From assembly GCA_030789695.1 (NCBI GenBank), contig CM061132.1:33132418-33196417 (forward strand): DNA of 64,000 bases, given 5' to 3'. The translations under genes were made by a program, and so were the position numbers. Of this stretch, positions 31,979-60,097 are shown piece after piece. The notes below the pieces were generated by a model. The model saw nothing but the letters and a program-made list of their open reading frames with translations. It searched no databases and had not been told where the DNA came from. Positions within the stretch are counted from its first letter, which is position 1. Every line of letters begins with the position of its first letter. This DNA comes from Scilla litardierei (lineage: Eukaryota > Streptophyta > Magnoliopsida > Asparagales > Asparagaceae).

Positions 31979-32310
31979 AGACAGTCGACTGATGAACAAT
32001 CTTCAATCGAATGGAAGAAATGATATAGATTGGCTTGGGTTGACAGACAGTCGACTGGTGCGTAATTCACAGTCGCATGTTGAAGAGACATTCGACTGTA
32101 ACTAACTCATCAGTCGACTGACAGAGAAGCAAAAATATGAAGATAAAAACAGAGATCACTGAAAATTTGAACAGGCGCCTGATGACCAAATTGCAGTCGC
32201 ATGTCATAGGGATAGTCGACTATAAAATCTTAATCAGTCGCCAGTGCGAAAAATACAGTCTGCTATTTGATAAAATAGAGATGGATAGTCGACTGTCGAA
32301 GGAATGACCG
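31979..32310 (-). promoter_or_regulatory. Internal GTCGAC palindrome array upstream of F accessory ORF
   Basis: Copies of the LTR motif, ACAGTCGACTG and variants, at about 31980-31991, 32046-32057, 32069-32080, 32090-32100, 32109-32121, 32216-32224 and 32284-32297. They lie 340-660 bp upstream of the accessory start codon in element orientation. A minus-strand TATATC (31900-31895) lies between. No ORF covers this stretch. Confidence 0.7.
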
Positions 32311-32593
32311 TCGTCTGTCCTGCTCCAGAAATACACAGTGAGGTTAAAATCTAGAGGATAGAGACAACTCACCCTAAGACCTATACTCTAACACCAATCT
32401 GATCATGAAATCATTATCAAAATATTATACATTCGCGTATACATCTCGAAAATCAATCCAAACAATCGAAATCATCAAAATATCAAATACATCTCTTAAA
32501 ACAAATATATGTAAACCATATAATTTATCAAAAGAATAGAAGTAAAAATGATGACATGAGTTCAAGTATGATAGAACATGAAAGTATGAACTC

Positions 32594-38088: not shown

Positions 38089-38089
38089 T

Positions 38090-38937
38090 TGTAAGGTCCC
38101 TGGCTATGAGGAAAACACTAGAATGGGGTTGAATAGTGTTTATGCAATTTAAAATGATAATTACACCAAATTAAATTCCTAACGAACAATTAAAGCGGAA
38201 TGAAAATAAACCCTAAAAATGAAATGCAAATGCAAGGATGTTTCAAGGGTTCAGATTACCCAAGTCGATTCTCGACTTGTTCCCAGTAATCCTACGTCCC
38301 TTCCATCCGGATATCACCGGATACTCAAGTTAGAAACCTATCTTGAGGTTTCCTTTAAATCCACTTGTAGCAACCCTACAAGTGAAATTGAAGTACACTC
38401 GATGTCCTTGACTCCCACAACTTGGGAGCAATCAAATCACTCTCACAAACCGAGAGTTAATCTAACAACAAAATATATGAAATATTGAAATTGCAACACT
38501 TACAATCATATATGCCTTGTCGTAGAACTTGAAGGAGAAAAGTGTGTTGAAGTGTTGATGTCTCTCTTGGAGGAGAGAAAAGCCCGGTCTCTTGACAGCA
38601 CCAAATGCCTAGAAGATTTCTCTTTGGTTCTAGGTTGGAGAGCAAGAGAATGAAAGATAGAAATTCTATGGATTTAGGAATTAAGAGCTTGAAGATGAAA
38701 GCTTAGGGTTTTAATAGATGAATGAGTTAGTAAGTAAGTAACCTCTCAATAGAACAGTAGAGGTTGCCTTTATAGTTTCCCCAAAGCCCTCAAACTAAAT
38801 CCCCAAAAACCCCTTTGAAATCTGTGGAGAAAAAGCCAACGGATTGAATTTACACACGTGACAGTCGACTGTTGAACAAAACACAGTCAACTGCTGCACT
38901 GTGTCAGAGGGTAGGTGAGAATTCAAACAGTAACTTC
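38090..38937 (-). repeat. 5' LTR of copia F, truncated
   Basis: 848 bp equivalent to 27348-28195 of the 3' LTR. It carries ACTATAAAGG (TATA at 38774-38769, minus) and a perfect ACAGTCGACTGT at 38861-38872. It stops abruptly after CAGTAACTT, where sequence homologous to G3 (from about 47105) begins. Confidence 0.88.
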
Positions 38938-41607: not shown

Positions 41608-41900
41608 TGTAACGACTGGTTTTTCATGTATTGGATGATTGGTATATTATATGTGATTTGGTAGATTTTCTCCTTGAGTGTGTTTTCCTCTCCGTAGTTC
41701 TTCGATTTCGTTCGTTTCGTTATGTTTTTCCTAACTTCTTTCTGCGATCGATGTGCTGAGGTGAGTCACTCATGACGAGCTTCTTAACGTCGATATCTTA
41801 GAGTTAGAATGGGCCTAGGAGACTTAGGAATCCTTCCCTGAGCTTCGCGCTCCATATCGGAACTTTTCGTGCACCTTAGTTGGTTCAAGAAGGAGAACCA

Positions 41901-42410
41901 ACCGACTAGATTTCAATCTAGTCGGTCAGGAACTCTTCTGGAACAGACTAGTTCATTAAATCAATTATTCAGAAGTTACTGTTTACTCTTAGTCGGTCTA
42001 AGAACAACCACCGACCGACTAGATTCGAAACTAGTCGGTCAGAACTTGCTCTCAGACCGACTAGTTCCTTTAATAATTTTTCCCCTAAAGTTACTGCTCA
42101 TGGTTAGTCGGTCTAAGAACACTTTTCGACCGACTAGATTGCAAACTAGTCGGTCAGCCATTGTTTTTTAACCGACAAGTTAATGATCATTTCAATGCTA
42201 AGTCACAGTTCACCGTTAGTCGGTCCATGAACACCCACCGACGGACTAGATCCCAAACTAGTCAGTCAATGCTTCTTCTTTGACCGACTAACTCTTAGTT
42301 CATTTTTCCTTCAGGAGCTACTGTTTGCGTTTAGTCGGTCCATGTTGAATGACCGACCGACTAGATCCCCAACTAGTCGGTCGACCACCCTTCTTTGACC
42401 GACTAACGAC
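41901..42410 (+). promoter_or_regulatory. GACCGACTAG hairpin array in U3 of G2
   Basis: Five inverted repeats: ACCGACTAGAT-ttca-ATCTAGTCGGT (41901-41926), GACCGACTAG-N8-CTAGTCGGTC (42013-42040 and 42128-42155), a diverged one near 42237-42269 and another at about 42354-42382. Half-sites TAGTCGGTC and GACCGACTA lie between them. The last ends about 40-70 bp before the TATA box. Confidence 0.8.
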
Positions 42411-42450
42411 CCTCGAAACCCTAGGTTTTGGGCGGCCGTCGGACTCTTCC

Positions 42451-42458
42451 TATAAATA
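42451..42458 (+). promoter_or_regulatory. TATA box of G2
   Basis: TATAAATA in context CCTATAAATAGATCC, placed just after the palindrome array. Confidence 0.7.
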
Positions 42459-44301
42459 GATCCGATCAGTTTCTTTTCTTTCTTTCTCTCCTCTAACCCT
42501 AGTTCTTCCCCATTGATTCCCCTACTACCCTAAACCCTTCCTCCTTCCTCTTGAGCCATTTCCTTCATCCCCCGAGCTCCCCTCACCCTCCATTTACACC
42601 GACACCTCCCCTTAGGCCGCAGACCCTCTTCAAAACCCCATCAATCTCCATTTTCTCCAGTTTTCCCCCATTTCCATATCTGAGCCGTGGTTCTCCGGGT
42701 CATTCATCTGTTGCCGTGTTTGTTCGGCATCGATCTACCGCTTCTATACGGTAGTGTTCGATCCTTTAGTTTTTCGCATAACCCACATTTGATATTGTGA
42801 AACCCTAATAAAAATGGATGTTAGACATCATAGGATTCAATTATAAAACTGGATTTAGATATCACTTCTAATGTTGTTTCTCCATAACAGTGATCCATTC
42901 CGTAGATTAGCTTTTGTGACGAATCCTCGTTACTCATCAACCCCGGTACCAGGCAAGTGAAACTTGCTGTCTCTTGATTTGGGCCATGTATTTAGGCCAT
43001 TACCTTGCTTTAGCGTAAAAGAGACTAGACAGTGAAAGGATAGCTGTCTAGACGCCATTTGATCTAGTTTGACAACGAAACTAGATCCGACACCTTTACT
43101 TGCTTCATTCATTTTACCTGTCATGTTTAAATTCAATTAACGGTACGTAATTTATCTGTACATGCCATGCCATCCATATTGAATGTTGCATTCGTAGCAC
43201 ACGCTACAATACTTGTACATTCTGGCTCGCCCAGGAATGTCCCGTTTACGGATAATTAATCGATGACGGGGGTGACCATTGGGTACTGGTGCTCCCCAGC
43301 CTTGGCTCACTCGTGACTGGTGCGCTCCGGTATGATATGTGGTATCATTCATGATTAATGTTTTGTCTCGGATCGATGACGGGGGTGACCATTGAGAACT
43401 GGTGTTCCCCAGCTTTGGTTCACCCGTAACCGGTGCGCTCCGATATGATACGCGGTATCATTCGTGATCCTTGCCTTGTCTCGTGTCTAGATGGAGCGTT
43501 TGTTGGCTCGTGTCCATAATACAAACGACTCGCAGGTGGGGTTGGACAAAAGAGTCTAGCTGGGCCTGGGGGTAGCTCCCCTTCGCCTATGCAGCTTGAG
43601 TCCTTAGGTTTGATCTTTGTATCGCAGTAGATGCACGACATGATTTACTTGACTTGTACTTGCCCATGTTTATACTTGCAAAACTTGTTATCCATGCCAT
43701 GCCTGCTAATTGTACTTTACTTTACTTGTTACCCATCCTATAACTGCCATGTCATGCATACTTTCTAGAACTGCTAGGTTGTCTTCCTTATGTTTCCTTG
43801 CCAAGTCTTTTAGACTTGCTGACATGTGCCCCTTGCTCTTTTGGGTGACACATGTTAGATCCCGAGCCTGAGTTGGTTGCTGAGGACGTGGTGTTTGCTG
43901 ATGCTGAGTCAGAACCCGCGTTCGTCGTGAAGTACGAGGACACCGGAGATCAGTCGTAGAGACTGTTTGTGTTCTTTGCCTTACACTACTTTTGATGTCG
44001 GTGCGTAGCACCAATACTCTGTTGTGTTGTCTTTTGTTGGCCTTGTTCTGGGCCTGGACTCTTTCCTTTTAGCCTGGTGGCTTTTGCTGTGATGTTGAAT
44101 ATTATTGTGGACAAATTCTGAGATTGGTTATTTTATATCAGTCACATTTCTATATTATTATTATTTTTGTTCCGTTGCGGTTACAGGGACCTGATATGTT
44201 TTGATTTGACGCTTATCAGGCGTGCAGCTTCACGGCACCACGTCTGAGCGGACCTTCTCGCGTCTCGCCTCCATTTTAGGGAAGCGGGGCGTGACACGTT
44301 A

Positions 44302-45971
44302 GGATATACCTAGATCTCATACTTATCAGCCGACTTAAATTCATTCTTTGATTTTGAAACTTTATTCGCCGTAATCTTTAGCCACTATCTTATAACGATT
44401 TTCTAACCTATGTCACCCATACTCACATATTTATCTTAATTCTAAATATGGAGATCCCCATCCTTAAACCCTACTTCTATTTCACGGATTCAATATAGCA
44501 TTTTCTTTCCCTACTACAACGTATTTCAAATCAACCGACCATATACAAATTTAAATACTTTTTATGATAAATAGAACTCCAACTATTTCAGTGTATCAGT
44601 TCTGTATTCATCGTATTTATACTTTAAATTTTTTTATTTAAATCTATCGCCATTTACAAAAAAATCACTACATCCCTATACTCATTACTCATTCATCTAT
44701 TAATTATCTTCTGTTTTAACTCATACCATCTGCTCACTATTCTTATATACGTTATAAAGTTATTATTATATTTTACGCATGTCTTTCATTCTCCTACTCA
44801 AGCATTCATAACTATTTTTTATACCACCTAATCAAGCTACCTCCCTCTCCATGTTTCATCTGAAACCGTTCATCACAACCTTGATTCGTTACACCATTTA
44901 ACTATAAACCCTACACTATTTCTTAGTTATCACATTAGTGTGTGTCTTTATTTATTACAACCTTAGCGAGATTTGGTTTAAATTTGGGTTATAATCCTTG
45001 TAGATGTTCTCTTCTTTTTAGTCCATCATCAGCAGTGTTAAATTTTTGTTATACCTTATATTGTTAGAATATTAGATATGATTACGATTATAGGAGATTA
45101 TATTTACGGATAAGTGTAGTTGAGATAATGTAAGTGTGTAGTTGTATTAGTTGATTATGAACACAAAGAACTTAGATTAATCTATTTACAAGGTGATAAA
45201 TAGAATGATGTGTTCAAGATTTATATGTTATATTTGGGTAATACCCATGCATAACAGCTTCAATAGAGTCTCATTTTATGAGTGGTGCATAGGAAGGGGA
45301 GTTCATTAAGGATTTGAAATTCAGATCAGTAGCAGCTAAGAGTAGTTATGCAAGTATAATATAATTTATAGTGACAATGAAGAGTGATTTGTGAGCATGA
45401 AAATTGTTGATTATAAATGGTGATGTATGCTAGGTGTATTTATACTTGTTGTAATATATTAGTAGTTGGTAGAGTACCGTTATATCGATTACTTAGTATA
45501 AGAATAAGATTAGAGTTGGATGATGTTACAATTATAGTGCTACAAGTTAGGTTATGCAATGAACAAGAGATGACATATTACGGATAAGACAACTTATGAG
45601 AATGAATAGTTTTTGGAGAACTTAGTTATAGAGGAGATTGTACCTTAAAGATTTCTCAGGAAAATGTTACCGTCCTAATAGCATGATAATTGAAAAAGTG
45701 AGGAATTTGCAAAGAGGTATTGATTGAGGATAGTTAGTATTTATTCTTTCAGAGGTTGCTTTGTATAAAGTATTGATTGTTTAAGACAAGTATTACGAGG
45801 TACATACTTAATGGAAATGTTGGATCTATAGTTTAGTTTAAGGATATGCTCATACTTGTAGCATTATTCAATAGTGAGACCTGAAGTGATCTTTTATCTT
45901 AGGAACACTTGATTGAGGTCATGGGTTTAGCAACCCGTGTGTTAGAATATTGGGGTTGCAGTTATGAATGA

Positions 45972-46024
<53 letters not shown>

Positions 46025-46343
46025 TGTGCGCGTGCATTATTATTATTCACTCACCCTTGACCCCTGCACAATGTGGGTAGCCGTCACTAGCTTTTGCTTG
46101 CACATCGATGGTTAAGGGCATCGATGGTGCAAAGTCATCCGTAACCCCCCCCCCCCCCCTTTTGAAATTCAATCTTAACCTCGTCACTTGCATCACTTCC
46201 TACTTGTCTCATTTCTTCGTCAGAAGTATTTCAGATCATAGTTTGTCTCATAGGAAATTCATGTGATAATATTATCGACGTCTGGTTAACGAACTCAATC
46301 TTAAGAAATTCCGAGGATGGAATTTTTCTTAAGGTGTGTAGAA
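44302..46343 (+). other. Decayed internal region of element G, right part
   Basis: AT-rich with no credible ORF. The last 60 bp (CGAGGATGGAATTTTTCTTA, then AGGTGTGTAGAA) resemble the 3' end of chromovirus pol and the polypurine tract that precedes the LTR. A (GT)n run lies near 45975-46030 and a C-run near 46146-46160. Confidence 0.6.
45975..46030. repeat. (GT)n microsatellite
   Basis: More than 20 GT units ending in GCGCGTGTGCGCGTG. Confidence 0.92.
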
Positions 46344-49300
46344 TGTAACGACCGGCATTTCGGTAAAACCCATTTTTACTCTTATTTTTATCCTTGTCGT
46401 ATTTTTTTGTATTCGTAGCCAAGACGTATACGTATTACGTATTCGTACTACATACGCGTATTAGCTATAATTATTTTTGATATCAATTATCCTATAAACT
46501 CATTAAATCTAATATTTCAAATCTGTTTTCGATTTCAAATCTCCCTTCCATATTCAACCGGGGAGACTTTTATTTCTTTTTTAATTAGCTAATAATCCCA
46601 TCTTAATCACAATTAATCCTTTGTTCATTTCCTTTTTCTCCTAATCTTTGCATCCCTCTTATTTAATCAAATCTTTCTTTTAATCCCAAACCCAATTTAC
46701 CCTTGACCAGCCGCAATATTCATTTGAGTTTTCATTCATACCCATTTGCATGCAAATTCAGAAACCGGGTTTTATTTTCTCACACACAACCCAAACACAA
46801 GCCTCACTGGGCTCCACACACAACCCAAGCCCTACAAATTTAAGCCTAGTTAATTATAAACCTTAGCTCTCACGTGCTAAGCCAAAGTTTTCTCCATGGG
46901 TTTCACATGCGCCCCCTCCCTTTTTCAACCCTACATATAATAAACTAAACCCCAAGGCATCTCTCCAAGCCTCACGTGTTTAACTCAGCCGCCCCTATAC
47001 TAAAAACCCTACAAAACCCTAGACTGCTTTCTCTTCTCCTTCAAGCCAGCCGCACAAATAAACAACCCAGTTTTTCTCATTCACAGGTCGAAAACCCCAT
47101 CACCCCGTTGCTTCTCCTTGCACAAGGCACATCACCCTTCCCCTTCGATCTACACTCAGGCCGCCCGAACTCACCGGCATCCCCCCTCCTCGCGAGTGAT
47201 CCCTCCAACGATCTTGTCCACGCACGCGTCTACTCCGGCGCCCTCATCCACGCGCACAACCCCCCAGCAACCTGTGGCATCTCCACTCCTCCCTTTTAAG
47301 CCCGTACCAGCCCCCTCAAGGCCGCAGACCCTCTCCCCACTTCTTCCTACTCCATGCACACCCTCAGCCAGTGGCGTAACCAGGATTTCTTTTTACACTG
47401 GGCGAAGATAAAGATTCTACAAAAAATAATATTTAAAATTACTATTGACTTTCTACTACGAATTTCATGTTAAATAATGGTCACCATGTTGCAATTTCAG
47501 TAATGACGGAAGTTTATCACATCTAAGAATATGCTTTAGGTAATTATATAACTAATCTAAAAAATAATCATACTTATTTTTTATGTTAGGAAATTTTTTC
47601 TATGGAAATAATTAGCATACTTGTAAGTCCACACTAAAAATGGTAATATTAACCAATGATAATATTGAGAAATGAAGATGAAAAAGTCCATCCCATATAA
47701 ATGTTTTACTTGGATTGAAATATAAACAAAGACATGAAATCTTTATTACAAATCAAAAAAAGATATCAAAAAACATCCTATATTAAAATAAATACCAAAT
47801 TCAATGCAAAATTCGGCTTTGCTTCCTAAAAAAATAAAATACTGAATTTACATTGAATAGTAACGCAGCCCAACCAAACTAAATTGGCAGTTTGCGATTT
47901 TAGACCATGAATAATAAATTGAATGGATCTGATCGTCAAAAAGGGGAAGGGAATGTTTGCATGCACTAGCCAACTAATACACATATTGTTCAATGGAAAT
48001 TTACTATATTCACAACTTTGTTGATCTGTATCTTCCAAAGGGTGTAAACATGTAATCAACATATTGCAATTAGAACATTGACATGGTGAAATATGTAAAA
48101 CGTCGAAAGGTGTAAAAAGAAAATGGCTAAATTAAATTGTAGGAAACATTGGTGTCATACTGCAATTAGAATCGTGACAGTGTCAAATATGTAAAAAGCC
48201 AAAAGGTTTAAAATGAAAAGGGGAAATCAAATTGTAGGAAACATTGGTATTGTACTGCAATTAGAATATTTGGCAATGTCAACTATGTAAAAAGTCGAAA
48301 GGTTTAAAAAGAAAAGTGATAACTTAAATTGTAGGAACATTGGTGTAACAGTGCAATTAGAATATTGACAAGGTCAAATATGTAAAAAAACGAAAAGTTT
48401 AAAAAGAAAAAGGGGAAATCAAAGTGGGTCAAATATGTAAAAAGCCAAAAGGGTTAAATATGTTAAAAACCAAAAGGTTTTAAAAAATTAAAAAGGGAAC
48501 TTAAAATTGTAGGACCAAGGTTTCGAAACAGTGATCAGTAGTTTTTTAAGCGCTCCTCATGACCATCCACTCCACTACAAGGTAATGTTCCTATGCATAA
48601 ACAAATTTTCTTTATTCTTGCCCTGGGCAGCTGCCCAGGGCAATCCTAGTGTAGTTACGCCCCTGCCCTCAGCCGCGCTCCAGCTCGCTGCAGACCGCCG
48701 GCCAACCCTCAGGCTACCAGCTTGCAACCGATGCCTCCCCTTCGACCAACTGCAGACCCCCAGCGATCCGTAGATGCCGATGTTCTCTTCTCCCCTCGCT
48801 GCCACAACGTGTTACCACGCAATAGACATCGTTAGACGCCATACATGTCGTCACTGCCCCTCGCTACATTCTGTTACACCGCTGCAACAATGATTAGTAG
48901 ATCTACTCCTTAGCATGCGATAACCCACACCCTAGGTTAGAGAACTTAATAAAAACAGGTTATTAGATGTCGTAGGGATTATCTTTAACATTTGATATGT
49001 CGTAAAAGACCAAATTCTGTTATATGTCTAATCAAACCAAAGAACCGATCTCACCGTAGCGTAGTGCTCGTTGAGATGAATCCAAAGCCACCAAGTTCAT
49101 CAAAATCAGACACGTCTACAATTTGTTATGAATTTTTGAAGTTCAAATGTTAAATCGTCTTTTTCACTTAAAGTTGAATAACAAGAATTTGACCCATAAA
49201 ATGGCGCTCAGTAAAAATACCATGACGACCCATACTTAATTTGTGACCCATTGACATAAAATATAGTATGTTTAATATTCAAGAATAAATAACGAAAAAT

Positions 49301-50107
49301 AGTTGATTGTAGCATGTTTAATAAACAACCCTTTTTAAATTCGTTGTTTAAATTGTTTCAGGGTGTGGTAATTCAGGATGAATGCTGAATTTGATGTGAC
49401 CAGATGCTCCACGTTATATTCTCCCACACACGTTTCCCATTACGACCACCCGGACACCCGAAATCATCAAATCAGGCAAGTGTGCGAATTTCATAAATTA
49501 TTCTAGTATTAATGTTAATTGCATTTTCTGCGTGTGCATGTGTGGACCCTTAATAAGTGAATTGGTAATGCATGTGTGTGTGTGGACCCTTAATAAGTGA
49601 ATTGATAATGCATGTGTGCGTGTGTGTGGACACTCATTAATGGAAAATTGACGATGGCATGAAACTCTTGAACTGCTTTGAACACACTTGATTGTATTGA
49701 AGCCATCTGCGAATAAGGCACCCTCCTAGTAGAGAGAGTGATCCTTTGTCCAGATAAGCTAGCAGCGAATAAGGCACTCTCCTAGCAGAGAGAATCATCC
49801 TTTGTCTAGATAAGCTAGCAGCGAATAAGGCACTCTCCAAGACAGAGAGAGTTATCCTTTGTCCAGACTTGTCTTGTGCACTTGGGTGGGGTAAGGTTGA
49901 GCCTATGCACGGTTTAGAGGGTTGATCCCCCTCAAATAGTAAGGCATGAACCCTCTTGACACACACCGTCTTGTCTTGTCTTGTCTTGTCTTGTAGCCAG
50001 TAGCACACGCTACGACCATTGCCATGCCACGTTTACTTTCTAGCACTGTCTTTTTCTTTCCTGCCATGACTATATAAATTGTCATGATCATTACTTTAAT
50101 TTTAAAA
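46344..50107 (+). mobile_element. G3, chromovirus-like 3' LTR, interrupted by H, carrying hAT2
   Basis: Starts TGTAACGACCGGCATTTCGG after a polypurine-like tract. From about 47105 it aligns with G1. hAT2 occupies 47369-48665. TATATAAA lies at 50071-50078, equivalent to 40581-40588. At 50108, where G1 continues TTTTAAAATG-TTGTAG, LTR H begins, so the last 560 bp or so are displaced beyond the window. Confidence 0.78.
47369..48665. mobile_element. hAT2, non-autonomous hAT-type element
   Basis: 1297 bp starting CAGTGGCGTAACCAGGATTT and ending GTAGTTACGCCCCTG, flanked by a perfect 8-bp duplication CCCTCAGC (47361-47368 and 48666-48673). G1 has one uninterrupted CCCTCAGC at the homologous place. 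There is no transposase. About 48060-48490 holds roughly five diverged copies of a 95-bp repeat built on TTGTAGGAAACATTGGTGT and GTCAAATATGTAAAAAGCC. Confidence 0.93.
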
Positions 50108-50707
50108 TGATCACTAACTAGCTTTGAGGGTAGGCCTGTCGAAAGGTTTTGATTGGGTGTCACTTGAAGCGTACGAGTAGAGTAATAACCAAGAGAGGAT
50201 TCGTCTCTCCCGGTCAATGGGAGGTAGTGTTGGAGAGTTAGTTCGGTCTTTAGTAAAATCTCTGATCAGAGTATGTTGGAAGAAGTCCAACATTTTTTGA
50301 CTAAAGATCGATAGAAACTAACCGGATTCAAGTTATTGGGGGAGACAGTTTGACCGTACCCTAGACTTGATCTACACGACATAGTTTAGACGAAGAGACT
50401 AAAACTATGAAACTCATCACGAACACAGTCAGGGTGGTCCCGACAATTCTCATGTCGAAGAGTTGACATGCATTTATATTTTATATATTCACACACGTCT
50501 TCTTTGTATTTTTCCGTTGTTTTCCGTCGTTCCGTCTCCACTTTCTTGTGATTTTAGTTTTCTTTCACTTCTTTGTGTTTTTGTATGAATGCATGAGTTT
50601 TCCAGCATTGGGGACATATAATGAAGATATCATGAGCCCCCAGAGCAACGGGAGGAGTCACGCATGATCCAGAGGGCAAAACGATGAAGATTGCTATATC
50701 TCAGCCC

Positions 50708-51155
50708 TCAACCGATCGGGTGGACACAGCCACCCGATCGGTTGATGCACGTGTATCCAACCCGGATAAAGGAAGAAGAGAAGAGCAGCTCACCCAATCG
50801 GTTCAACGATCGGGTGAGATCACAGAGCTCTCTGTCATTTGGGATGAATTCCAACCGATCGGGTGACATCTCACCCGATCGGTTCACCTGTAGCTGAAAT
50901 TTCCAAACGACGAACCAAAGAACTCACCTGATCGGTTCAGTGATCGGTTGAGATCTACAGAGCTCTCTGTCTTTTTGGGCATAGTTCCAACCGATCGGGT
51001 GATATCTCACCCGATCGGTTCATCTGTAGCCGCATCTCCCCAACTCTCGAACCGGTCATGCCACCCGCTCGCCTCAGCACCCGGTTGAAGCTTCTGAAGC
51101 CTGATAGCCAAAGCGATCATCAGCTCAGGTTGATGCTTCAACCGATCGGGTGACC
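50708..51155 (+). promoter_or_regulatory. CCGATCGG hairpin array in U3 of H
   Basis: Inverted repeats with arms of 16 bp (TCAACCGATCGGGTGG 50708-50723 and its complement 50730-50745) and 14 bp (50853-50866/50871-50884 and 50989-51002/51007-51020, arms AACCGATCGGGTGA). Degenerate pairs lie near 50790-50818 and 50925-50953 and single sites near 51138. The array ends about 60 bp before the TATA box. Confidence 0.82.
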
Positions 51156-51214
51156 TCAATTTCTGCGGTTTTGTTGGGTATTTGGACCCGAACCGTTAGG
51201 GTTTCACAGGGGAC

Positions 51215-51222
51215 TATAAATA
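51215..51222 (+). promoter_or_regulatory. TATA box of H
   Basis: TATAAATA in GGGGACTATAAATACACG, after the hairpin array. Confidence 0.7.
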
Positions 51223-52385
51223 CACGATATTGGCCGACTTGATGAGGATCTCTTCTATTTTTAGGGCTGTTTCAGCCCCTTTGTTGGGAGCCCTAGGTTA
51301 GCTTAGATTAGGATTTGTCTTCAATAAATCTTGTAAAGGATTGGTGGATTCGAAGGCAAGATAAGTATTTCTCTTCTTATTTCCATTGTTTTGTGTTATT
51401 TTCATTTTGCTTGATGGTGAATGTTTGTTTGTCTCTTTTATTGCTTATTTTTATGTTCTTCACCATTGAGTAGTGTTTGATGAACCCTAATATGTGTTAG
51501 AGTAGGATTGAAGCTTGGGATTTCACATTTTACTTGGTTGCATGGTATGTGTTAGATGGAATGTGTCAATGGGGATTTCTAGCAATCTAAGTCCAATTCG
51601 CATGGCAACGTACTAGTTGTGTTGGGGATTGGGGTCAGGTGTCTTGTCCAGTCAAGATCCGCTTTGATGTATTGCTAGAAATCACATTCGACCTATTTGG
51701 TCATTAGGGTTACGCGGGGGCGTTTTATTGTCATTGGCAGGAGAAAGACCACCTCTGACCGTCAGGCCAAGGGGGAATAAATTTGGCGGTTGACTCCCTA
51801 GCCACAGCTCACACCCCTAGCGTAGACATTGAGTCCTCGCGTGTGGGAACGGCTTGGACGAAATGTTGGGAGTTATCATTGTGGCCTTAATGCTCACGGT
51901 TGCGGAAGGTGTTAATGGACATGGGAATGCCCACCGTCCGAAACCGGGTAGACCTAGCATACTGGGCATCGACCGGAATATCGGGCCTATGGACGCTAGG
52001 TACCACCTTTAGGGGCAATGTCTCACCCTGGGTCAAGTCAAATGCCAAGTGTCATGAATGCTCTAGCCTGTGTTAGCGGGGATTCATTTCTTGTCGTTTT
52101 CATTTATTTCTTCTATTTCTACACTTCCACCCATATCATCCGCGTAGCTAGCACACAACCTAGGCGAGGCTAGTAGCCATTCAAGCCATCCACCTCCCTG
52201 AGTTCGATAAACCTGCACCCTACACTAACCGTGCACTTGCGGTAAAATGACACCGCGCCCAAACCGTAAACGGGGTGCCGGTCATGAGTCAACCACATAA
52301 TTATGATTCTGAAACAGGGACGTGAACTATTGCTAGTGGTCACTGTCGTATAGGGATTCGAGCCCAACCTGTAGTAGGGTCAGGC

Positions 52386-53807
52386 TGTAGGGTCACACAC
52401 AGAGTGCGGCCTTCGTCCAATAATAGGTAGAATCATTAGGGAGAATATGCATTTGATGCAAGGGATAGAAAATTGCATTTGATGCAAATGATAATTTTAA
52501 GCCTAGATAGGGACTAATTTGCATATGATGCAAAAGGGGTTAAATAGGTCTTAAATTGTTTAAGACCATATTTAATATTATGAACGCTTGAAAAAGGTTA
52601 CCTATAAGATGGGAATGTCCCGCTCTAAACACAGGTTCGAACGGCGTCCAAATCAGATGCCAAAGGCCCAAGTTACGCTCAATACAGACCAAAGGGGCCT
52701 GACCCATGCCCAAACTGGATGTGGGTCAGACCAGGACTGAACCAGGCCAGACCACTCAGGTCTGGCATGGACGCCTGGCCCGGCCGACCCTGGGTACCCG
52801 GCCCAGGCCCAGGTCCAGGCCTAGGCAGTGCCCAGTCAGCAGGGTTTTTGAGCAGTGGGGCCTACATGCTGGGCCCCACATCTGGGTGCAGAACCCTAAG
52901 GGCAGTTTGCAATTTTGACGGCCGATTTGGACGAAAATCAGGCCATGGGCTAACCTTTGGGCGATCAATTGGAGGGTCAAACGGACTCCAATTGACTCGC
53001 CATTTTTTCCTATGAATTCACCATTGAACGTCCTTCGATTTGGTAGGTTGTACCAAGGTTGAAGCTCAACGGTGAGGAAGTTAAAATTCACGAAAGTTTG
53101 CCCTTTGTGAAAGGCAAACTAACTTGATTTAATTAACTCAAATTTAATAGTCCCACATCGGTTGTGGAGAAAAGGGAAGAGTCAGCCCTTTGTGAAATAG
53201 GGGCATCCCCCTTCCTCCAAACTTGTCTCAAGCTCAAGATGTGAGCGTCTCCCAAAAACGTTGGAGCACGCTTGGATCAAAGCCTAAATTAATTCTGCTG
53301 CTCCCTATATTTCTGCCTTACTCCTAAAGGGATCTAGCAAAGCCACGAAGGAGTTCGGATTCGGATCCGAAATCTTGGCGAAGACTCACTCGCGTGAAAC
53401 TTTCTTCGACGCGAGGTTGGCTCGACGATACGAGGATTGCTTGCCTCGGGATGCGGAGCGGTTCGAGGAGCTTTCCGAGGAGAGGTTCGGCGTGGGACAT
53501 GGATCGGCTCGAAAGACGGTGTTGTACACCTTGCCTGCCCCAGGGCAAGGTTCCGGGTATGTTTTTAGAAGCTTTTGTTTTAATTATTCGCATTAGGTTA
53601 GATCCTTCTTGGGATGGTCAGATCCATCCCGAGTCGGCAAAGATCTTGGCTAAGGGTCTTGTATCTTAGGGGTAAGTTAAAATGTTTAACTGCATGTTAA
53701 TTAGATTAACCTGTTTATTTTTCTGCTTCGCATTTTATGTCTATGTTCCGTCCGACTTAGGACGGGAATAGAGTTTTTGTGCCCTCAGGGTTCCTCAAAA
53801 CCCTACA
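52386..53807 (+). repeat. 5' LTR of element I
   Basis: 1422 bp, TGTAGGGTCACACACAGAGT to CTCAAAACCCTACA, followed after one base by an initiator-Met PBS. It contains AGTCCCACATCGG (about 53150), a motif common in plant LTRs, and an 11-bp copy of GCATTTGATGCAA-type repeats near 52450-52530. The second LTR is outside the window. Confidence 0.8.
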
Positions 53808-53808
53808 G

Positions 53809-53820
53809 TGGTATCAGAGC
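53809..53820 (+). other. Primer binding site of element I
   Basis: TGGTATCAGAGC, a perfect match to the plant initiator-Met PBS core. Confidence 0.93.
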
Positions 53821-54636
53821 TTAGGTTTGCGTAACGATCTAGCACTGCGATTTTATTAAACATTGAAATGCATTTAAAATACTTTTACAATGTTTTAAAG
53901 TTATGAGATAATTTTTAAAATATTTTTAGATGCCTTTTAAAATTTATGTGATATTTTTTAAAGATAACTTTAAAAGCCTAAAATTTTTATGCAATAAATA
54001 TTTTAAGTAGCATGCAAATTTTGTGATCTTTTAAAACAAGTTTTTTTTATTTTATGAGATAAAATAAAATGTTTTAAAAATTTAAATGTTAAATTTAAGT
54101 ATGCATGCTAAAATTGTTTATTTGATAAACATTATTCTATTTAATTGTTAAATAGTTGTACACTCTTTTATGCGATAAAATTAGTGTAATTTTATGTTAA
54201 TGGCCATGCAAATGTTGTCACTTATTTGATAACACAAGACAACCCTCTTAGGTAGCCATTAAGAACTCGTTAAAATTTATGAGATAAATTCTAATGACAT
54301 AATATGTTTTAATAAAACATTAACAACACTTTAAGACCTAATTCCTGATTAGGGTAGTCCCTTTAATGAAAATTTTAATTCTAATTGTTATGTAATTAAT
54401 TCTCATTAAAGGACTTTGCTTTTAGTGTTGTTAATAAATTTATTAAAATCCTAATAACGATTAGGATAGCACGTGAACCTTATAGTTGATAAGGATTTAA
54501 TAAAAGTTATTAAACAAATCCTAAAATTTTGAATTTAAGGATTCAACTAGTTGATAGGATTATTAGTTGTTAATAAATTAATCCTTTTAGTCTATGGCAC
54601 GCATATAAAAATAACAAGCTTTATTCAATGGACCAT
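53821..54636 (+). other. AT-rich leader of element I
   Basis: Non-coding leader with recurring GTTTTAAA/ATTTTAAA words and several imperfect copies of TTAATAAA-containing segments (54240-54580). No gag is reached before element C interrupts at 54637; the left flank of C is ACCAT (54632-54636). Confidence 0.7.
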
Positions 54637-54931
54637 TGATCACTCCTTATTTTACACTTTTTTCCCGCATGTTTGCATGCCATTTAGATCGCCCAAATCA
54701 TGTTTTTCACGATATATCGACGACATTGCGATGCTTTTCACGATTTGTTGTTTTTGTCGCATTTCAGGTGATTTGGAGCGATTTGGAGTGATCTCGAGAT
54801 GCGCTTACTCCAGAGGGTCACCGACGACCTCCCCAAGGGGTATTTTACTGTTGGAGAGGAGCGGAAGAAGAACGGACGTCGCAGGAGCGACGAGGAGGCC
54901 AAAACAAGCTGTTTGGGCATTTTTGGTGTCC

Positions 54932-55315
54932 CACTCGGCCGAGTGGAGGAGTCACTCGGCCGACCAGCGAGACACCACTCGGCCGACCAGATCGGATACG
55001 TTTCATACGTGCACTCGGCCGAAAGACGGAGACCACATCGGCCGAGTGACGAGATCCTGTCCGCCCGAGTGGCGCCCAGACGAAGCTATTCAAAAATCGC
55101 CAACTTACTATTTTTCGTCTGCCTGAGCTTCAGAAGACCCACTCGGCCGAGTGGATAATCCCGACCGCCCGAGTACCAAGAAGCCATCGGCCGAGTGACG
55201 ACAACTCACTCGGCCGAGCCGCCCCCAAAGTGAAGACCCCTGAAGATCAAGACTTACTAGAAATTTACAGGGTTTCTCACTCGGCCGAGCGACTTTTGTC
55301 ACTCGGCCGAGTGCG
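54932..55315 (+). promoter_or_regulatory. CGGCCG palindrome array in U3 of C 5' LTR
   Basis: About twelve sites, among them perfect CACTCGGCCGAGTG at 54932-54945 and about 55139-55152 and 55301-55314, with half-changed copies (CACTCGGCCGACC, CATCGGCCGAGTG, CCGCCCGAGTG). It ends about 80 bp before the TATA-like site. Confidence 0.75.
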
Positions 55316-55794
55316 ACGCGCTGCCTGTAGCGAAAATTGCGGATTTCAGGCTGTGCAGGGGTATTTTGGTCACAGTTTTTGGACGATTTTGGGGGGTATT
55401 TAACCCATGTTTTTACCATAGGTTAGAGAGCTTTTCTCTTAGATTTTTGCAGCTTTTTAGATTAAATTTTTAGCTTTATTCTTGTGATTGGAGAGGAGAC
55501 AAAAGTTGATTTTTGTTGGATTAATTGAAGAACTCCATTGGTTTGCCTCTCTTTTCTCTAAAAATTCTATTTTTATTGCTTATCTCAATATTGTGATGAA
55601 TTCTCTTGTCTATTTCATTGATTGTTTTTGTGTTTGTGCTATGAATTGTGAGTAGTCTCCACATCTTGGGGCGTGGGGATGAACCCTACAAGCCCAATTT
55701 CATATTTGTGATGAATTGGTAGAAATTTTGCTAGAATTGTTGTTAGGGATTAGTTTGGGAGCGATTTACTACGGATAGCTAGGAGTTCATACCG

Positions 55795-56084
55795 ATTGGG
55801 ATTTGCAAGAGATTGGATCCCAATTCGATAGGAAACCCTAGAAATCCGAATTGGGTTGGAATCGAATTTCCGTAGTATCGGTTTGCAAGAGATTGGACCG
55901 ATACTAGGGTTCCCGGTTGCAATTCCGTGCCGATACCCGTTTGCAAGAGATTGGACGGGTAGGAACTATCCCAACCTAGGTCGTGGGCCGAGTTTGCACG
56001 AGAGTGGGCTCGGTGCGCGATTGAACGATGATGTTGATCCTAATGCTAGCTTCCCTAGGCTAGGGTTTGCAAGAGATTGGACCC
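55795..56084 (+). repeat. Constant-loop, variable-stem hairpin series in C 5' LTR
   Basis: Five copies of loop TTGCAAGAGATTGG (one as TTGCACGAGAGTGG), each between different complementary arms. They are ATTGGGAT/ATCCCAAT (55795-55824, 8 bp), AGTATCGGT/ACCGATACT (55874-55905, 9 bp), TACCCGT/ACGGGTA (55934-55961, 7 bp), CCGAGT/GCTCGG (55988-56013, 6 pairs with one G-U) and GGGT/ACCC (56063-56084, with outer CTAG pairing). A sixth, degenerate copy may lie at 56104-56135. Repeated in the 3' LTR at about 63405-63695. Confidence 0.85.
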
Positions 56085-56458
56085 GAATCTAGGATAGCTA
56101 TAGACCGGCAACAGCGCGAGAGCGTGAGCTTGGTTCTACATTCAGTTGCAATTAGTTCATCCAAAATCTTATTCTAGCAATTTTGATACCGATGAACCAC
56201 ATTGACGAGATACGGTGAGTAGCGGGAATTCCCCATTCCCTAGACGTTCTTTATTTGATTTGATATTTCTGTACTTTGTCTGACGATTGTGACAGGATCG
56301 CCAAAGGAAAATTTCTCTCTTCTTAAATAGCCAGGTTGATTAGAACAAGCACGGTCATTCGTCCTCCCTGTGTTCGATAACCCGCTCGCCGCTATACCGT
56401 GCGCTTGCGGTAAAACTACAACCGTTCTTTGGGTCACATTCCGGAGCGATCAAGTTTT

Positions 56459-56475: not shown

Positions 56476-56479
56476 AGTT

Positions 56480-57303: not shown

Positions 57304-57631
57304 TCACTCGGCCGAGTATACTAGTCGCTCGGCCGAGTACACAAGTTCGTCCGGCCGAGCCGCTCACGAACGAGGGAAGTCTGCTATACCCAACTCTCTG
57401 TTTATTTTCCTGATTTCAGTATAACTGCTACTCGGCCGAGTATATACATTCACTCGGCCGAGTAAAACGGATACGCTCCTAGGGCAAGTCTTGCCGAGTA
57501 GCTTGAGCCACTCGACCGAATGGACTTACTCCACTCGGTCGAGGCTGGCAAGGCCACTCGGCCGAAGCGTTAGCGGGTAAGGATTTTCCATTGATCTCGC
57601 TCGGCCGAGTGACTCAGTCACTCGGCCGAGT
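57304..57631 (+). promoter_or_regulatory. Internal CGGCCG palindrome array upstream of the accessory ORF
   Basis: The LTR motif recurs here: CACTCGGCCGAGTA (57305-57318), GCTCGGCCGAGTA (57327-57339), TACTCGGCCGAGTA (57429-57442), CACTCGGCCGAGTA (57451-57464), CACTCGGTCGAG (about 57532-57543), then GCTCGGCCGAGTGACTCAGT and a final CACTCGGCCGAGT ending at 57631. A TATA box follows 13 bp later. This is a second copy of the U3 arrangement inside the element. Confidence 0.8.
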
Positions 57632-57643
57632 CGTAACTTTTCC

Positions 57644-57650
57644 TATAAAA
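57644..57650 (+). promoter_or_regulatory. TATA box upstream of the accessory ORF
   Basis: TATAAAA in TTTTCCTATAAAAGGGGGCG. It lies 537 bp before the start codon at 58187. Between them are possible splice signals, including GCGCAG followed by GTTGTTTC at about 58001-58014, so the mRNA may have a spliced leader; that is inference. Confidence 0.6.
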
Positions 57651-58186
57651 GGGGGCGGGGTCGGGCTCGTTTTTCGAAACGACACATACCGCAGCGCCCC
57701 GACCCTTCAGCTCGCTCGCCCGAACCCTTCGCCTACTCGCCCGATCGACGTCGCCGCGCCGCCGCTCGGCCAGCCACCGCCGGCCGAGCCGCCACCGCTC
57801 CTCGCCCGAGTTGCCGCCGGCGGCCACGTCTCCGGCCACCTCCGGTATCGCCTATTTAGCATATTTCTCATCTTTTTGTGTGTTTTTCAAGGATCCATGC
57901 GTTAAACGAACCCCAAACCCAAATCGATTTCTATATCTATCTATTATACCCCTAATGCTCCATACGTTTTGAATATTACTCGCTGATATCTCCATTTCAT
58001 GCGCAGGTTGTTTCTGGGAGCTTAGGGGAGCCCAGGGGAGCTTCTAGGGACTGATTCGGGCTTCGCGGAGGCGTTGTCTTCGCACGCTTCCATTGCTTTG
58101 CACTCACGGCGTGTCGTGGTATACTCTTTCCTTTATTTTGCACACGCCGCACTTTTCACGCTTTTCGGCGCGCGCTCGGGGCCCAT

Positions 58187-60097
58187 ATGCCGCCCCGGAC
58201 ACGGCCGCGGTCGAGGAGAGCTTCCGCCAAGCGGAAGCGGTCGGATGACGCCGGCCCCTCCCACGAGTTGGAGGACTCTCCTCCGCCTTCTCCACCACAC
58301 CCCGTTTACCCTGCAGGCCCCACACACCCCGCACAGCCTGCAGAGCCCGCACAGCCCGTACACCCCGCACAGCCGCTCCATGCCGCTCCACAGCCACCAC
58401 CTCCGGCTCCACTTATCGGGCCGCTGGGGATCACGTTCCGGAACGACGCACACCGCGTCTCTTTCGAGCGTATTTCCCAGCGCTCGATCGTACCCTCCAG
58501 GTTTGCACACCTTGCCGACCTAGGACGCCTGGGGGTACTAGAGGGGATGCTCACGTTGTACGACAACGTGGGCTGGCGAGATTTCTTTCAGGTGTCGGCG
58601 GACACGTCTATCCGTCCGACACTTGAGGTACTTAGTTCGATCGCCCAGACTGACGAGGGATGCTCGTTTCGGTTCATGGACCGGGAGTGCCAGGTCACTC
58701 TCGGTATGATGAGAGCCTTTTTCTCGTGGCCCGATGTCCCCGGGGCCGATCGAGGTTACGCCCCCACCCATATCCCCCCACCTTCCTTCGACGCCGGTGC
58801 CTTTTGGGCCCGGATTATGGGTCTTCACGCTGCCTTTGACCCTAGTAGGGCCAAGGCCTCGGCTATTGTCCATCCCTGCCTCCGTATAGCTCAGCGCCTT
58901 ATGTCGACGACCTTTTTGGCCAGATATGAGCCGGGCACGATGTCCACGCCAGAGCTCTACATGCTCTACGCGATGACACGGCCCAGAGCTCTATCTAGGG
59001 ATGGCGATGAGCTGGTCCCCGCCGTCGTGATTGATGTCGCGGCTTGGTTTTTGGACCGCATCATTGTATCGGTGGGCGCTCGCTCACCGATATGCTGCGG
59101 CGGCCTGATCACCTTGCTCGCCCTTATGACCGGCGAGGACTTCCCTGACGACCTGCGACGAGCACCGGGCCCCACTTCTCTGTCGATTGATGTTATGGCC
59201 CGGATGAATATGCTTCGTCCGCACGGTGAGCGACACTGGGTCTTGCTGCACGGCCCTTACGGTGCCGATTACATGATTCTTCCGAGCCCAGCTCGGACTC
59301 AGATTGCACCGGCCCATGTGGACTGGTTCCCTGCGATGGATGTTCTGATCCCAGCCGCTTACGTGCTCGAGGCCGAGGAGGCCGAGCAGGCCCACGCTGC
59401 CCACGCTGCCCCCGCAGACCCTGTTGCACCTGCCGAGCCTGCTGCCCCTGTTGACCCCGTGGCCCCTCAGCCTATCCCCGATGTTTCCGATGCTCCAGAC
59501 ACCTATGTCCACACCTCTGTCGGTGTCGGGAGTACCTTAGCTGAGCCCACTTCCACTACTTCCACGCCTGTCACCACCACCACTGGCCCTCTGTCTACCG
59601 AGCCCGTTTCTTCTGCCCCACCCGAGCGCCCGCCGACCATAGTTGAGTGCGGAGAGCCCTCTGTCTCCACTGCTGCTGTATTTTCCGAGAGTGTCGTGGC
59701 GTCTGTCCACACTTCTGTGCCACCGACCTCTCTGGCCGCCTCGCTGCCACTTTTGTATTCTTCTTTTGCTGCGGCTGCCTCCACTTCTCACCGTCCTGCC
59801 CAGCCTCGAACTGAGGCCAGGCCCCCACTTGCGAGCGCAGCCCCTTTTGTTCCCTTGCCTGCTGAGCCCGTCACCTACGCCACCAGAGTACGCCAGCCCC
59901 GACCTGCACAGCCCCGACCGGTGCGTCCCTCTGCACCACCTCCCCCTGACACTGTACTTCAGAGCATTCGTGCTCTCGAGGGGGCGGTGAGTGGCCTCAG
60001 AGGCGACCTTCGGACCCTGTCCGCCACCGTCACTGCGATGGCTGGCCGCTTTGACCTGCTCCCGCACATTCACTACTATCTTACCCAGGTCCTGTAG
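58187..60097 (+). CDS. Accessory protein of element C (ATHILA ORF1-like), intact 636 codons
   Basis: Role unknown; ORFs at this position in Athila elements have been called env-like and resemble the ATHILA ORF-1 family. Residues 4-19 (RTRPRSRRASAKRKRS) look like a bipartite nuclear signal. A Pro-rich, low-complexity stretch follows (30-78). The conserved core spans about 82-395 with FRNDAHRVSFERI, LTLYDNVGWRDFF, FRFMDRECQVTLGMM, LARYEPGTMSTPELYMLYAM, AAWFLDRIIV and GGLITLLALMTGEDF. A Pro/Ser/Thr/Ala-rich linker (395-575) leads to a coiled-coil-like end (VLQSIRALEGAVSGLRGDL). No signal peptide, no clear membrane anchor and no Cys-rich ectodomain are seen, which argues against an envelope. The same ORF in B is broken by stops and a frameshift; here it has none. 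The TAG at 60095-60097 stands where a CAG would continue 53 more Pro-rich codons to a TAG at 60257. Start chosen because the B homologue begins with the same MPPR. Confidence 0.82.
   Translation: MPPRTRPRSRRASAKRKRSDDAGPSHELEDSPPPSPPHPVYPAGPTHPAQPAEPAQPVHPAQPLHAAPQPPPPAPLIGPLGITFRNDAHRVSFERISQRSIVPSRFAHLADLGRLGVLEGMLTLYDNVGWRDFFQVSADTSIRPTLEVLSSIAQTDEGCSFRFMDRECQVTLGMMRAFFSWPDVPGADRGYAPTHIPPPSFDAGAFWARIMGLHAAFDPSRAKASAIVHPCLRIAQRLMSTTFLARYEPGTMSTPELYMLYAMTRPRALSRDGDELVPAVVIDVAAWFLDRIIVSVGARSPICCGGLITLLALMTGEDFPDDLRRAPGPTSLSIDVMARMNMLRPHGERHWVLLHGPYGADYMILPSPARTQIAPAHVDWFPAMDVLIPAAYVLEAEEAEQAHAAHAAPADPVAPAEPAAPVDPVAPQPIPDVSDAPDTYVHTSVGVGSTLAEPTSTTSTPVTTTTGPLSTEPVSSAPPERPPTIVECGEPSVSTAAVFSESVVASVHTSVPPTSLAASLPLLYSSFAAAASTSHRPAQPRTEARPPLASAAPFVPLPAEPVTYATRVRQPRPAQPRPVRPSAPPPPDTVLQSIRALEGAVSGLRGDLRTLSATVTAMAGRFDLLPHIHYYLTQVL

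What the first reader, a model, noticed from the sequence alone, without database searches (positions are those of the whole stretch)
41901..55315. Unrelated LTR families each carry a family-specific palindrome array just upstream of the TATA box
Seen: Athila-like B/C use CACTCGGCCGAGTG, copia F uses ACAGTCGACTGT, chromovirus-like G2 uses GACCGACTAG hairpins and Athila-like H uses AACCGATCGGGTGA hairpins. Each array has 5 to about 15 copies in 350-780 bp and ends within roughly 30-100 bp of a TATA or TATA-like box (42451, 51215, 38769, about 55395). LTRs D, G1 and G3 show a weaker version with hairpin repeats. The motifs differ in sequence but share size, self-complementarity and place. Inference: convergent use of dimeric-protein binding sites as U3 activators, or sites for protection from or targeting by silencing. 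I know of no named system that joins these families.
Basis: partly seen in the sequence, partly recalled or inferred. Interest (0 to 1): 0.88.

Follow-up and report, generated by a model that had tools for sequence, protein, structure and literature searches.

The report
Phased palindrome promoters in plant retrotransposons
Very different families of jumping genes in this plant genome carry clusters of short mirror-symmetric DNA sites, neighbours set about two turns of the helix apart, both at their main promoter and at a likely second, inner promoter, which points to a sequence-reading protein that may be made by the elements themselves.

Summary
Palindrome arrays sit 5' of TATA-like boxes in LTRs of Ty3 (Athila-like B/C and H; chromovirus G2) and Ty1 (copia F) elements; CACTCGGCCGAGTG occurs 130,572 times in the 3.68-Gb genome versus 1 for the reversed control. 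'No named system' is wrong: Bousios 2010 described such repeats in Ty1 Sireviruses, in U3 and before the env-position gene, calling them Sirevirus-specific. New here: (1) the same anatomy in Ty3 elements; (2) neighbouring dyads about 21 bp apart, two helical turns (99 of 100 and 47 of 50 listed doublets at 19-23 bp; weaker for CCGATCGG); (3) Ty3 internal arrays end 11-14 bp before a TATA, upstream of a 3' ORF; 7 of 7 elements with such an ORF have an internal array, 0 of 3 without; (4) LTR and internal arrays mostly share only the motif, while a U3 array moved between Ty1 and Ty3; (5) motifs are conserved between elements but not after insertion. Best reading: phased sites for a dimeric DNA-binding protein serving two promoters. 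Whether the 3' ORF (PF03078/PF20167) or the host encodes it is open. RNA hairpins are less likely, not excluded.

The parts
41900..42406 (+). G2 (Ty3 chromovirus-type LTR) U3 array, 17 GACCGACTAG half-sites, as GACCGACTAG-N8-CTAGTCGGTC dyads
   Evidence: similar LTR followed by Ty3 gag and RT in L010 and L024/L029
42451..42458 (+). TATA box (TATAAATA) 45 bp after the G2 array
50708..51153 (+). H (Athila-like LTR) U3 array of CCGATCGG dyads
51215..51222 (+). TATA box (TATAAATA) 62 bp after the H array
54636..56390 (+). Athila-like element C, 5' LTR (98.3% identical to 62247-64000)
54932..55313 (+). C 5' LTR U3 array, CACTCGGCCGAGTG
55397..55403 (+). TATA-like box TATTTAA, 84 bp after the array
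57305..57632 (+). C internal array, same motif; spacers share one short segment with the LTR array
57644..57651 (+). internal TATA box TATAAAAG, 12 bp after the last palindrome
58187..60094 (+). C 3' ORF, 636 codons, PF03078 (ATHILA ORF-1), basic N-terminus
62542..62923 (+). C 3' LTR U3 array
23277..23638 (-). Athila-like element B, 5' LTR U3 array
17474..17810 (-). B internal array; TATATA 11 bp after it (about 17463-17458)
11038..12405 (-). B 3' ORF (PF03078), 60% identical to C's over this stretch, interrupted
7873..8235 (-). B 3' LTR U3 array
28122..28892 (-). copia F 3' LTR U3 array, ACAGTCGACTGT
31981..32318 (-). copia F internal array; only a weak TTATATC 80 bp after it
30831..31640 (-). 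copia F 3' ORF as it stands; relative of the PF20167 proteins in L010 and L023, itself without a Pfam hit
38861..38894 (-). copia F 5' LTR remnant of the U3 array (similarity to the other LTR ends at 38936); TATAAAG at about 38774-38768

Best explanation
The arrays are DNA-level promoter modules: clusters of dyad (two-fold symmetric) binding sites for a dimeric sequence-specific DNA-binding protein, with near neighbours set two helical turns (about 21 bp) apart so that bound dimers face the same side and can cooperate. Each module feeds a promoter. One copy in U3 drives the full-length RNA. In elements with an extra gene downstream of pol, a second copy, with the same motif but mostly unrelated spacer sequence, sits in front of that gene and in Ty3 elements directly abuts a TATA box. 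Shown: motifs, spacing, TATA side and distance, two locations, link of the internal array to the 3' ORF, motif conservation in the replicating lineage. Inferred: protein binding, activation, and that the boxes are used. Committed guess for the protein, about 0.4: the element's own 3' ORF product (PF03078 in Ty3, PF20167 in Ty1), acting on its own promoter and on U3 as an activator or anti-silencing factor, so that motif and protein drift together by family; elements without the ORF would borrow a factor from elsewhere. A host transcription factor is nearly as likely (about 0.35).
For: Spacing: CTCGGCCGAGN{0,30}CTCGGCCGAG 90,144 versus 26 control; of the 100 places listed 31/52/16 are at 21/22/23 bp and 1 at 38. 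CAGTCGACTGN{0,30}CAGTCGACTG 32,684 versus 18; of 50 distinct places listed 39 at 22, 7 at 20, 1 at 19, 3 at 39-40. Both tallied by hand from the first places on contig 1; many are copies of one another. Against random placement: 58 of 98 gaps (random mean 9.5, max 21 of 2000 runs), 43 of 72 (8.7, max 19), 8 of 26 for CCGATCGG (1.8, max 8, so weaker). Half-site spacing: ACTCG-N2-CGAGT 54 of 57, CGACTAG-N8-CTAGTCG 40 of 40, CAGTC-N0-GACTG 24 of 31. Internal array in 7 of 7 elements seen with a 3' ORF and in 0 of 3 without; 4 further internal arrays, picked by their doublets, all lead to the ORF. Motif-masked LTR versus internal arrays of one element: z 1.3 (B), -0.7 (L016), 0.4 (F), 3.5 (L022), 6.3 (C). 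Differences between close elements: motif 49 of 850, spacer 222 of 1409, P 1.6e-13; between the two LTRs of one insertion 45 of 1039 versus 61 of 1626, P 0.48. PF20167 in L010 and L023, PF03078 in B and C, called related in PMC11728184 (passages).
Against: No binding, expression or methylation data. Ty1 internal arrays (F, L023, L010) have no clear TATA (0 of 3). Arrays also occur in elements without the 3' ORF (L024/L029, L013, L021/L030), so the ORF is not needed in cis. Beyond near neighbours the phasing fades: CTCGG gaps of 55-59 and 69-83 bp are common, and only 8 of 26 CCGATCGG gaps are at 19-22 bp. Profile comparison of the Ty1 and Ty3 3' ORF proteins found no clear relation (hhalign probability 3.7, E 0.012, with only 3 and 2 sequences). 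The structure model was useless (mean pLDDT 31). C's LTR and internal arrays share a short segment. For CTCGG neighbours two hairpin measures lean slightly towards pairing (see rivals).
Confidence: 0.7

Rival explanations
1. Host transcription factor only: each family exploits a host dimeric factor; the internal array gives the 3' ORF the same expression pattern as the genomic RNA.
For: Needs no new protein; LTR-only arrays exist without the 3' ORF; the same motif serves Ty1 and Ty3 elements; Bousios 2010 mainly recovered stress-related plant factor sites when comparing the RMs with PLACE (section 9).
Against: Does not by itself explain why motifs differ by family within one genome while the geometry stays the same; no host factor was identified here (no motif database was at hand).
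Confidence: 0.35
2. RNA hairpins: palindromes act in the transcript, as siRNA precursors or structural signals, as argued for maize Sireviruses.
For: Predicted RNA of six arrays is far more stable than mononucleotide shuffles, z -9.5 to -13.7; the maize literature links palindrome-rich LTR regions with small RNAs (PMC5311732 and PMC10760457 passages); in G2 and H neighbouring sites form inverted repeats around a short centre (pairing tests not run on them). For CTCGG neighbours, spacers are slightly more complementary than shuffled (0.94 versus 0.70 of 3 outer pairs) and pairing-restoring variants are 13 versus 9.5 expected (P 0.13).
Against: For AGTCGACT neighbours (55 unique pairs) pairing-restoring variants are rarer than expected (6 versus 12.1) and spacers are not complementary (0.75 versus 0.77); no G-U excess in either set (GT 19 versus AC 25; GT 29 versus AC 97); centre-to-centre distance is alike in motifs whose loops would differ in length; internal arrays lie 5' of their own TATA, though the full-length RNA would contain them.
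Confidence: 0.15
3. Passive tandem amplification: arrays grew by slippage and the regular spacing is a by-product.
For: Unit-like repeats of about 115 bp in G2 and 22 bp in B; shared direct variants of neighbours somewhat above chance (25 versus 18.9, P 0.08; 17 versus 12.2, P 0.08).
Against: Between close elements motifs differ about a third as often as spacers; same motif in LTR and internal arrays with mostly unrelated spacers; similar spacing with unrelated motifs; spacers within listed doublets vary.
Confidence: 0.07
4. Sites of host silencing (targets of a host repressor or RdDM) rather than activators.
For: All four motifs hold CG pairs; palindrome regions are small-RNA hotspots in maize (PMC5311732 passage).
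Against: A replicating lineage should lose such sites, but they are kept and placed at promoters.
Confidence: 0.08

Closest known systems
Palindromic repeated motifs (RMs) of Sireviruses, Bousios et al. 2010, PMC2829016 (section 9 and passages read)
   Same: 8-32 copies of an element-specific palindrome per element, in U3 upstream of TATA and before the ENV-position gene in 9 of 9 elements that have it, none internal in 4 of 4 that lack it. Copia F and the L023-type copia look like this kind.
   Different: Described as Sirevirus-specific; here also in Ty3 Athila-like (B/C, H) and chromovirus (G2) elements. The paper supports but could not conclusively identify an internal promoter; here Ty3 internal arrays abut a TATA. 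The two-turn spacing and a Ty1-Ty3 exchange are not in the parts read.
VANDAL/VANC anti-silencing system, Hosaka et al. 2017, PMC5735166 (abstract and passages)
   Same: Arrays of short motifs in non-coding parts that differ between related elements; an unrelated element (AT9TSD1) carries VANC6 motifs, as G2 shares its array with Ty1 elements.
   Different: DNA transposons (recalled); the paper's text does not use the word palindrome (0 occurrences); VANC binding was shown, here no binding protein is known.
Grande gene23 of maize (Gomez-Orte 2013, seen as cited in PMC7264820)
   Different: Antisense orientation; no palindrome array mentioned in the parts read.
Foamy virus Tas (LTR promoter plus internal promoter), PMC8670036 (start of abstract in listing)
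   Same: Two promoters, LTR and internal, that both need one factor.
   Different: Here the factor is hypothetical; no homology tested.
Maize Opie/Ji LTR palindromes CACCGGAC...GTCCGGTG and small RNAs (Bousios 2016, not held; seen as cited in PMC10760457 and PMC5311732)
   Same: Palindrome clusters in the LTR cis-region.
   Different: Read there through secondary structure and small RNAs; Ty1 elements.

Membership tests
Sirevirus palindromic RM (Bousios 2010) | at least 8 copies of one palindrome per element, clustered in U3 5' of TATA | tested here: met
   for B, C, F, G2 (17 half-sites), H (9 sites with up to 2 mismatches)
Sirevirus palindromic RM (Bousios 2010) | further copies before the 3' (ENV-position) gene when present, none when absent | tested here: met
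   7 of 7 with the gene, 0 of 3 without; elements cut by the ends of their stretch (L012, L014, L018, L019, L025, L028) left out
Sirevirus palindromic RM (Bousios 2010) | carrier is a Ty1/copia Sirevirus | tested here: not met
   B and C carry PF03078 and B RVT_1/RNase H; G2-type LTR precedes Ty3 RT in L010. F and L023 carry RVT_2; Sirevirus clade not tested by a tree
Sirevirus palindromic RM (Bousios 2010) | CGG-CCG signature (12 of the 13 RMs of the paper) | tested here: inconclusive
   present in CTCGGCCGAG; order CCG-CGG in the CCGATCGG and tight GACCGACTAG dyads; absent in AGTCGACT (as in the paper's Tnd-1)
Sirevirus palindromic RM (Bousios 2010) | RM clusters bound a CpG island | not tested
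   -
VANC-like anti-silencing | element-encoded protein binds the motif and removes methylation | not testable with these tools
   needs EMSA/ChIP and methylomes
VANC-like anti-silencing | motif arrays in non-coding regions, differing between elements | tested here: met
Foamy-virus-like dual promoter | LTR and internal promoter share the factor's sites | tested here: inconclusive
   same motif at both places, with TATA in Ty3 elements; promoter use and factor not testable

The most novel reading that the evidence does not exclude
Plant Ty3 and Ty1 retrotransposons run the same regulatory circuit: the 3' ORF in env position (PF03078/PF20167) encodes a dimeric DNA-binding activator or anti-silencing factor that reads family-specific dyads phased two helical turns apart in U3 and in its own internal promoter; elements without the gene (G2 chromovirus, gag-only copias) parasitise it by carrying the dyads only, and whole U3 arrays pass between superfamilies.
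Probability: 0.33. Interest if true: 0.92.

Novelty: new variant of a known kind. Interest (0 to 1): 0.74.

Why it matters
It turns what was described as a Sirevirus-specific feature into a promoter design found in both LTR superfamilies, with arrays in 13 of 20 sampled stretches of a 3.7-Gb genome. It adds a quantitative rule (near dyads two helical turns apart) and a selection signature, and offers a concrete, testable function (regulator, not envelope) for the unexplained 3' ORFs of plant retrotransposons.

Tried and rejected
Considered and rejected or weakened: chance palindromes; RNA hairpins as the main role (mixed for CTCGG; RNA stability itself is high); tandem duplication alone. Homology of the Ty1 and Ty3 3' ORF proteins was not shown: BLASTP best E 0.046 over 37 residues, hhalign probability 3.7. 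Led nowhere: protein search of the F 3' ORF in the large database (3679 candidates, none at E 0.001); PDB sequence searches (one chance-level row each); structure model of the C 3' ORF domain (mean pLDDT 31; no fold search made). Not obtained: genome-wide PF20167 loci and the doublet listings for CCGATCGG and GACCGACTAG, because the genome search machine did not answer.

Limits: the sample is 20 stretches of 10 kb, the first of six sets of pseudo-random places drawn (contigs 1, 2, 4-7, 9-11), plus targeted pieces. Related copies are not independent. The 33 arrays of the TATA table were picked by me, include both LTRs of several elements, and the box pattern allowed TATTTAA after I had seen it in B and C; three flanks were shorter than 130 bp; one miss (L024 H array) comes from an array end set too far 3' (its TATAAATAG follows the last palindrome). 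The five close pairs were chosen from the 15 for high flank identity (0.84-0.92), and two share the C LTR. The G-T/A-C asymmetry of CTCGG neighbours (29 versus 97 cells) is unexplained; in the six window arrays it sits at the two outermost positions.

Full report
WHAT WAS CHECKED. The window lies in a 3.68-Gb genome, a plant's by its elements. Self-comparison gives LTR pairs for the minus-strand Athila-like element B (6771-8540 and 22173-23942, 94.1%), the plus-strand element C (54636-56390 and 62247-64000, 98.3%) and copia F (27342-28197 and 38084-38936, 91.4%). Pfam supports Ty3/Athila for B and C (PF03078; RVT_1 and RNase H in B) and Ty1 for F (RVT_2, Retrotran_gag_2). All four motifs are present in arrays far above dinucleotide shuffles. 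Genome-wide the 14-mer CACTCGGCCGAGTG occurs 130,572 times against 1 for the reversed control.

UNBIASED SAMPLE. In 20 pseudo-random 10-kb stretches, 5 of 164 locally clustered 10-mers (4 or more in 800 bp) were palindromic against an expected fraction of 0.2%, and all five were CTCGGCCGAG or CAGTCGACTG (overlapping 10-mers are not independent). A de novo scan for repeated dyads over the window and the 20 stretches found 11 clusters, 10 of them known motifs (none CCGATCGG); the mirror-repeat control gave 2 low-complexity keys in one stretch. By motif scan, 13 of the 20 stretches hold at least one array of three or more sites of the four motifs (with CGACTAGTCG standing in for GACCGACTAG).

SPACING. 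Within a site the half-sites keep one distance: ACTCG-N2-CGAGT 54 of 57, CGACTAG-N8-CTAGTCG 40 of 40, CAGTC-N0-GACTG 24 of 31 pairs found at 0-20 bp. Between neighbouring sites, CTCGGCCGAG lies at 21, 22 or 23 bp in 15, 29 and 13 of 98 gaps and ACAGTCGACTGT at 22 or 18-19 bp in 31 and 12 of 72. Genome-wide, of the 100 listed CTCGGCCGAG doublets with 0-30 bp between them, 99 are at 21-23 bp, and of 50 distinct listed CAGTCGACTG doublets 47 are at 19-22 and 3 at 39-40. For CCGATCGG only 8 of 26 gaps are at 19-22 bp. In the G2 array half-sites alternate at 18 and 24 bp within a unit, which puts successive dyad axes 21 bp apart. Against random placement the first two families clearly exceed 2000 simulations; CCGATCGG equals the simulated maximum (8 versus mean 1.8). 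Two helical turns is the common denominator of near neighbours; longer gaps are not well phased.

PLACE. A TATA-like box lies within 130 bp on the sense 3' side of 25 of 33 arrays and on the antisense 5' side of 0 of 33; six of the 25 are TATTTAA, all in CTCGG LTRs. Distances are family-typical: 84-98 bp (CTCGG LTR), 75-87 (AGTCGACT LTR), 44-45 (G2), 55-58 (Ty1 GACCGACTAG), 13 and 62 (CCGATCGG LTR), 11-14 for the four Ty3 internal arrays. The three Ty1 internal arrays have no clear TATA.

TWO PLACES PER ELEMENT. B, C, L016, L022, F, L023 and L010 have an array inside the element, before a 3' ORF. In L022 the ORF is known only by a short start (MPPRRAKP, no Pfam hit), and its tie to the H-type LTR is by order and motif. 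Four further C-type internal arrays, picked by their doublets, show array, a TATA-like sequence 11-13 bp on (3 of 4 by the strict pattern, the fourth reads TTTATAAG), and an ORF beginning MPPR about 0.6 kb downstream. Three elements without such an ORF have no internal array: the G2-type chromovirus in L024/L029 (gag, a 1000-residue pol ORF, then the 3' LTR array), the gag-only copia in L021/L030, and the L013 copia. This repeats in Ty3 elements the rule that Bousios 2010 reported for Ty1 Sireviruses (9 of 9 and 0 of 4; PMC2829016 section 9).

SAME MOTIF, DIFFERENT BACKBONE. With motifs masked, LTR and internal arrays of the same element are not alignable above shuffled spacers in B (z 1.3), L016 (-0.7) and F (0.4); L022 (3.5) and C (6.3, a short segment) show some relation. 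Internal-internal comparisons of the Athila elements give z 15-38 and LTR-LTR comparisons 3.9-210 (the lowest, B versus L016, stays within its null maximum). Conversely, the Ty3 chromovirus G2 arrays match the LTR arrays of Ty1 elements outside the motif (z 6.6 to 17.6) but not those elements' internal arrays (z 0.1 to 1.3): a U3 array moved between superfamilies, direction unknown. The AGTCGACT motif also occurs in copia groups whose U3 spacers show no relation (F versus L013b and L021, z 0.5 and 1.7).

SELECTION. In 15 of 15 between-element comparisons (not independent) motif identity exceeds spacer identity; in the six LTR pairs of single insertions it does so once. In five close pairs motifs differ at 49 of 850 positions and spacers at 222 of 1409 (P 1.6e-13); in the six LTR pairs 45 of 1039 and 61 of 1626 (P 0.48). 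The motif is therefore constrained while the lineage replicates and drifts after insertion, as expected for a cis-element of the retrotransposon. Caveat: the motif mask favours consensus-like columns; the LTR pairs carry the same bias and show no effect, but are less diverged.

DNA OR RNA. Palindromes make the RNA stable (z -9.5 to -13.7, mononucleotide shuffles, six arrays), so a hairpin role cannot be excluded. Against it as the main role: for AGTCGACT neighbours compensating variants are fewer than expected (6 versus 12.1), G-U pairs are not favoured, and spacers are not complementary. For CTCGG neighbours the result is mixed: spacers slightly more complementary than shuffled (0.94 versus 0.70), mirrored variants 13 versus 9.5 (P 0.13), but A-C cells exceed G-T cells (97 versus 29), which is not a sense-strand wobble pattern and is unexplained.

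WHO BINDS. The 3' ORF proteins have a basic N-terminus, then a conserved domain: PF03078 in C and B, PF20167 in L010 and L023. The F protein is a distant relative of the latter (39-41% over 105 residues) although its RT is 70% identical to that of L023; these two elements carry different motifs. For B, C and L016, which share a motif, the 3' ORF (60-65%; 48% in one B piece) diverges about as much as a neighbouring ORF (54-75%). This contrast rests on one pair with different motifs. PMC11728184 (passages) calls the two Pfam families related and predicts nuclear localisation for a sunflower Athila 3' ORF protein; it also suggests RNA-silencing modulation for other additional ORFs. This fits an element-encoded regulator but does not show one; my hhalign test found no clear relation and the structure model failed.

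LITERATURE. No paper on palindrome arrays in Athila-type LTRs or on a plant retrotransposon-encoded transactivator stood out in the listings (25 of 148 listed; 5 of 5; 12 of 104; 12 of 17), open-licence PMC only and judged by titles and abstract starts. PMC10760457 (passage) cites studies of palindromic cis-arrays in TEs of several organisms, which I could not read. The VANC comparison rests on the abstract and passages of PMC5735166; the foamy virus comparison on an abstract start; the review PMC7264820 was read in two of three parts, and tells of a nuclear accessory protein of maize Grande with its own promoter.

VERDICT. Observation right and genome-wide; interpretation partly right; precedent exists in Ty1 Sireviruses; the extension to Ty3, the spacing rule, the internal TATA boxes, the array exchange and the selection signature are the new parts.

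Noticed in passing
54636-64000: Element C keeps both LTRs, an ORF resembling one near the end of B's coding part, the internal array with TATA and an uninterrupted 636-codon 3' ORF, but no gag or RT was seen: probably a deleted derivative that kept the 3' ORF unit. In L022 (7304-9822) a protease-containing ORF is followed by the internal array and a 3' ORF start without RT between.
   Followed up: partly
6549-6763 and 23958-24081: A further palindrome-like array, CCCCCCGTCCGGGGGG with about 30-bp spacing, flanks element B on both sides, so B probably inserted into it; similar arrays in L018, L019 and L020. It may belong to the Ty1 element at 2301-5134.
   Followed up: partly
13560-13836, 40215-40382, 49709-49867: LTRs D and G1 carry 56-57-bp tandem units each with a hairpin (for example CACTCTCCTAGCAGAGAGAGTG); different design from the two-turn dyads.
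   Followed up: no
28122-28892: In copia F the palindrome often has G for T at position 5 on one side only, and neighbours share variants directly rather than mirrored.
   Followed up: partly
CTCGG arrays of the window, L014, L016, L018, L028: Deviations from symmetry between neighbours are lopsided in the element's sense strand: A-C mispairs 97 versus G-T 29. Unexplained.
   Followed up: partly
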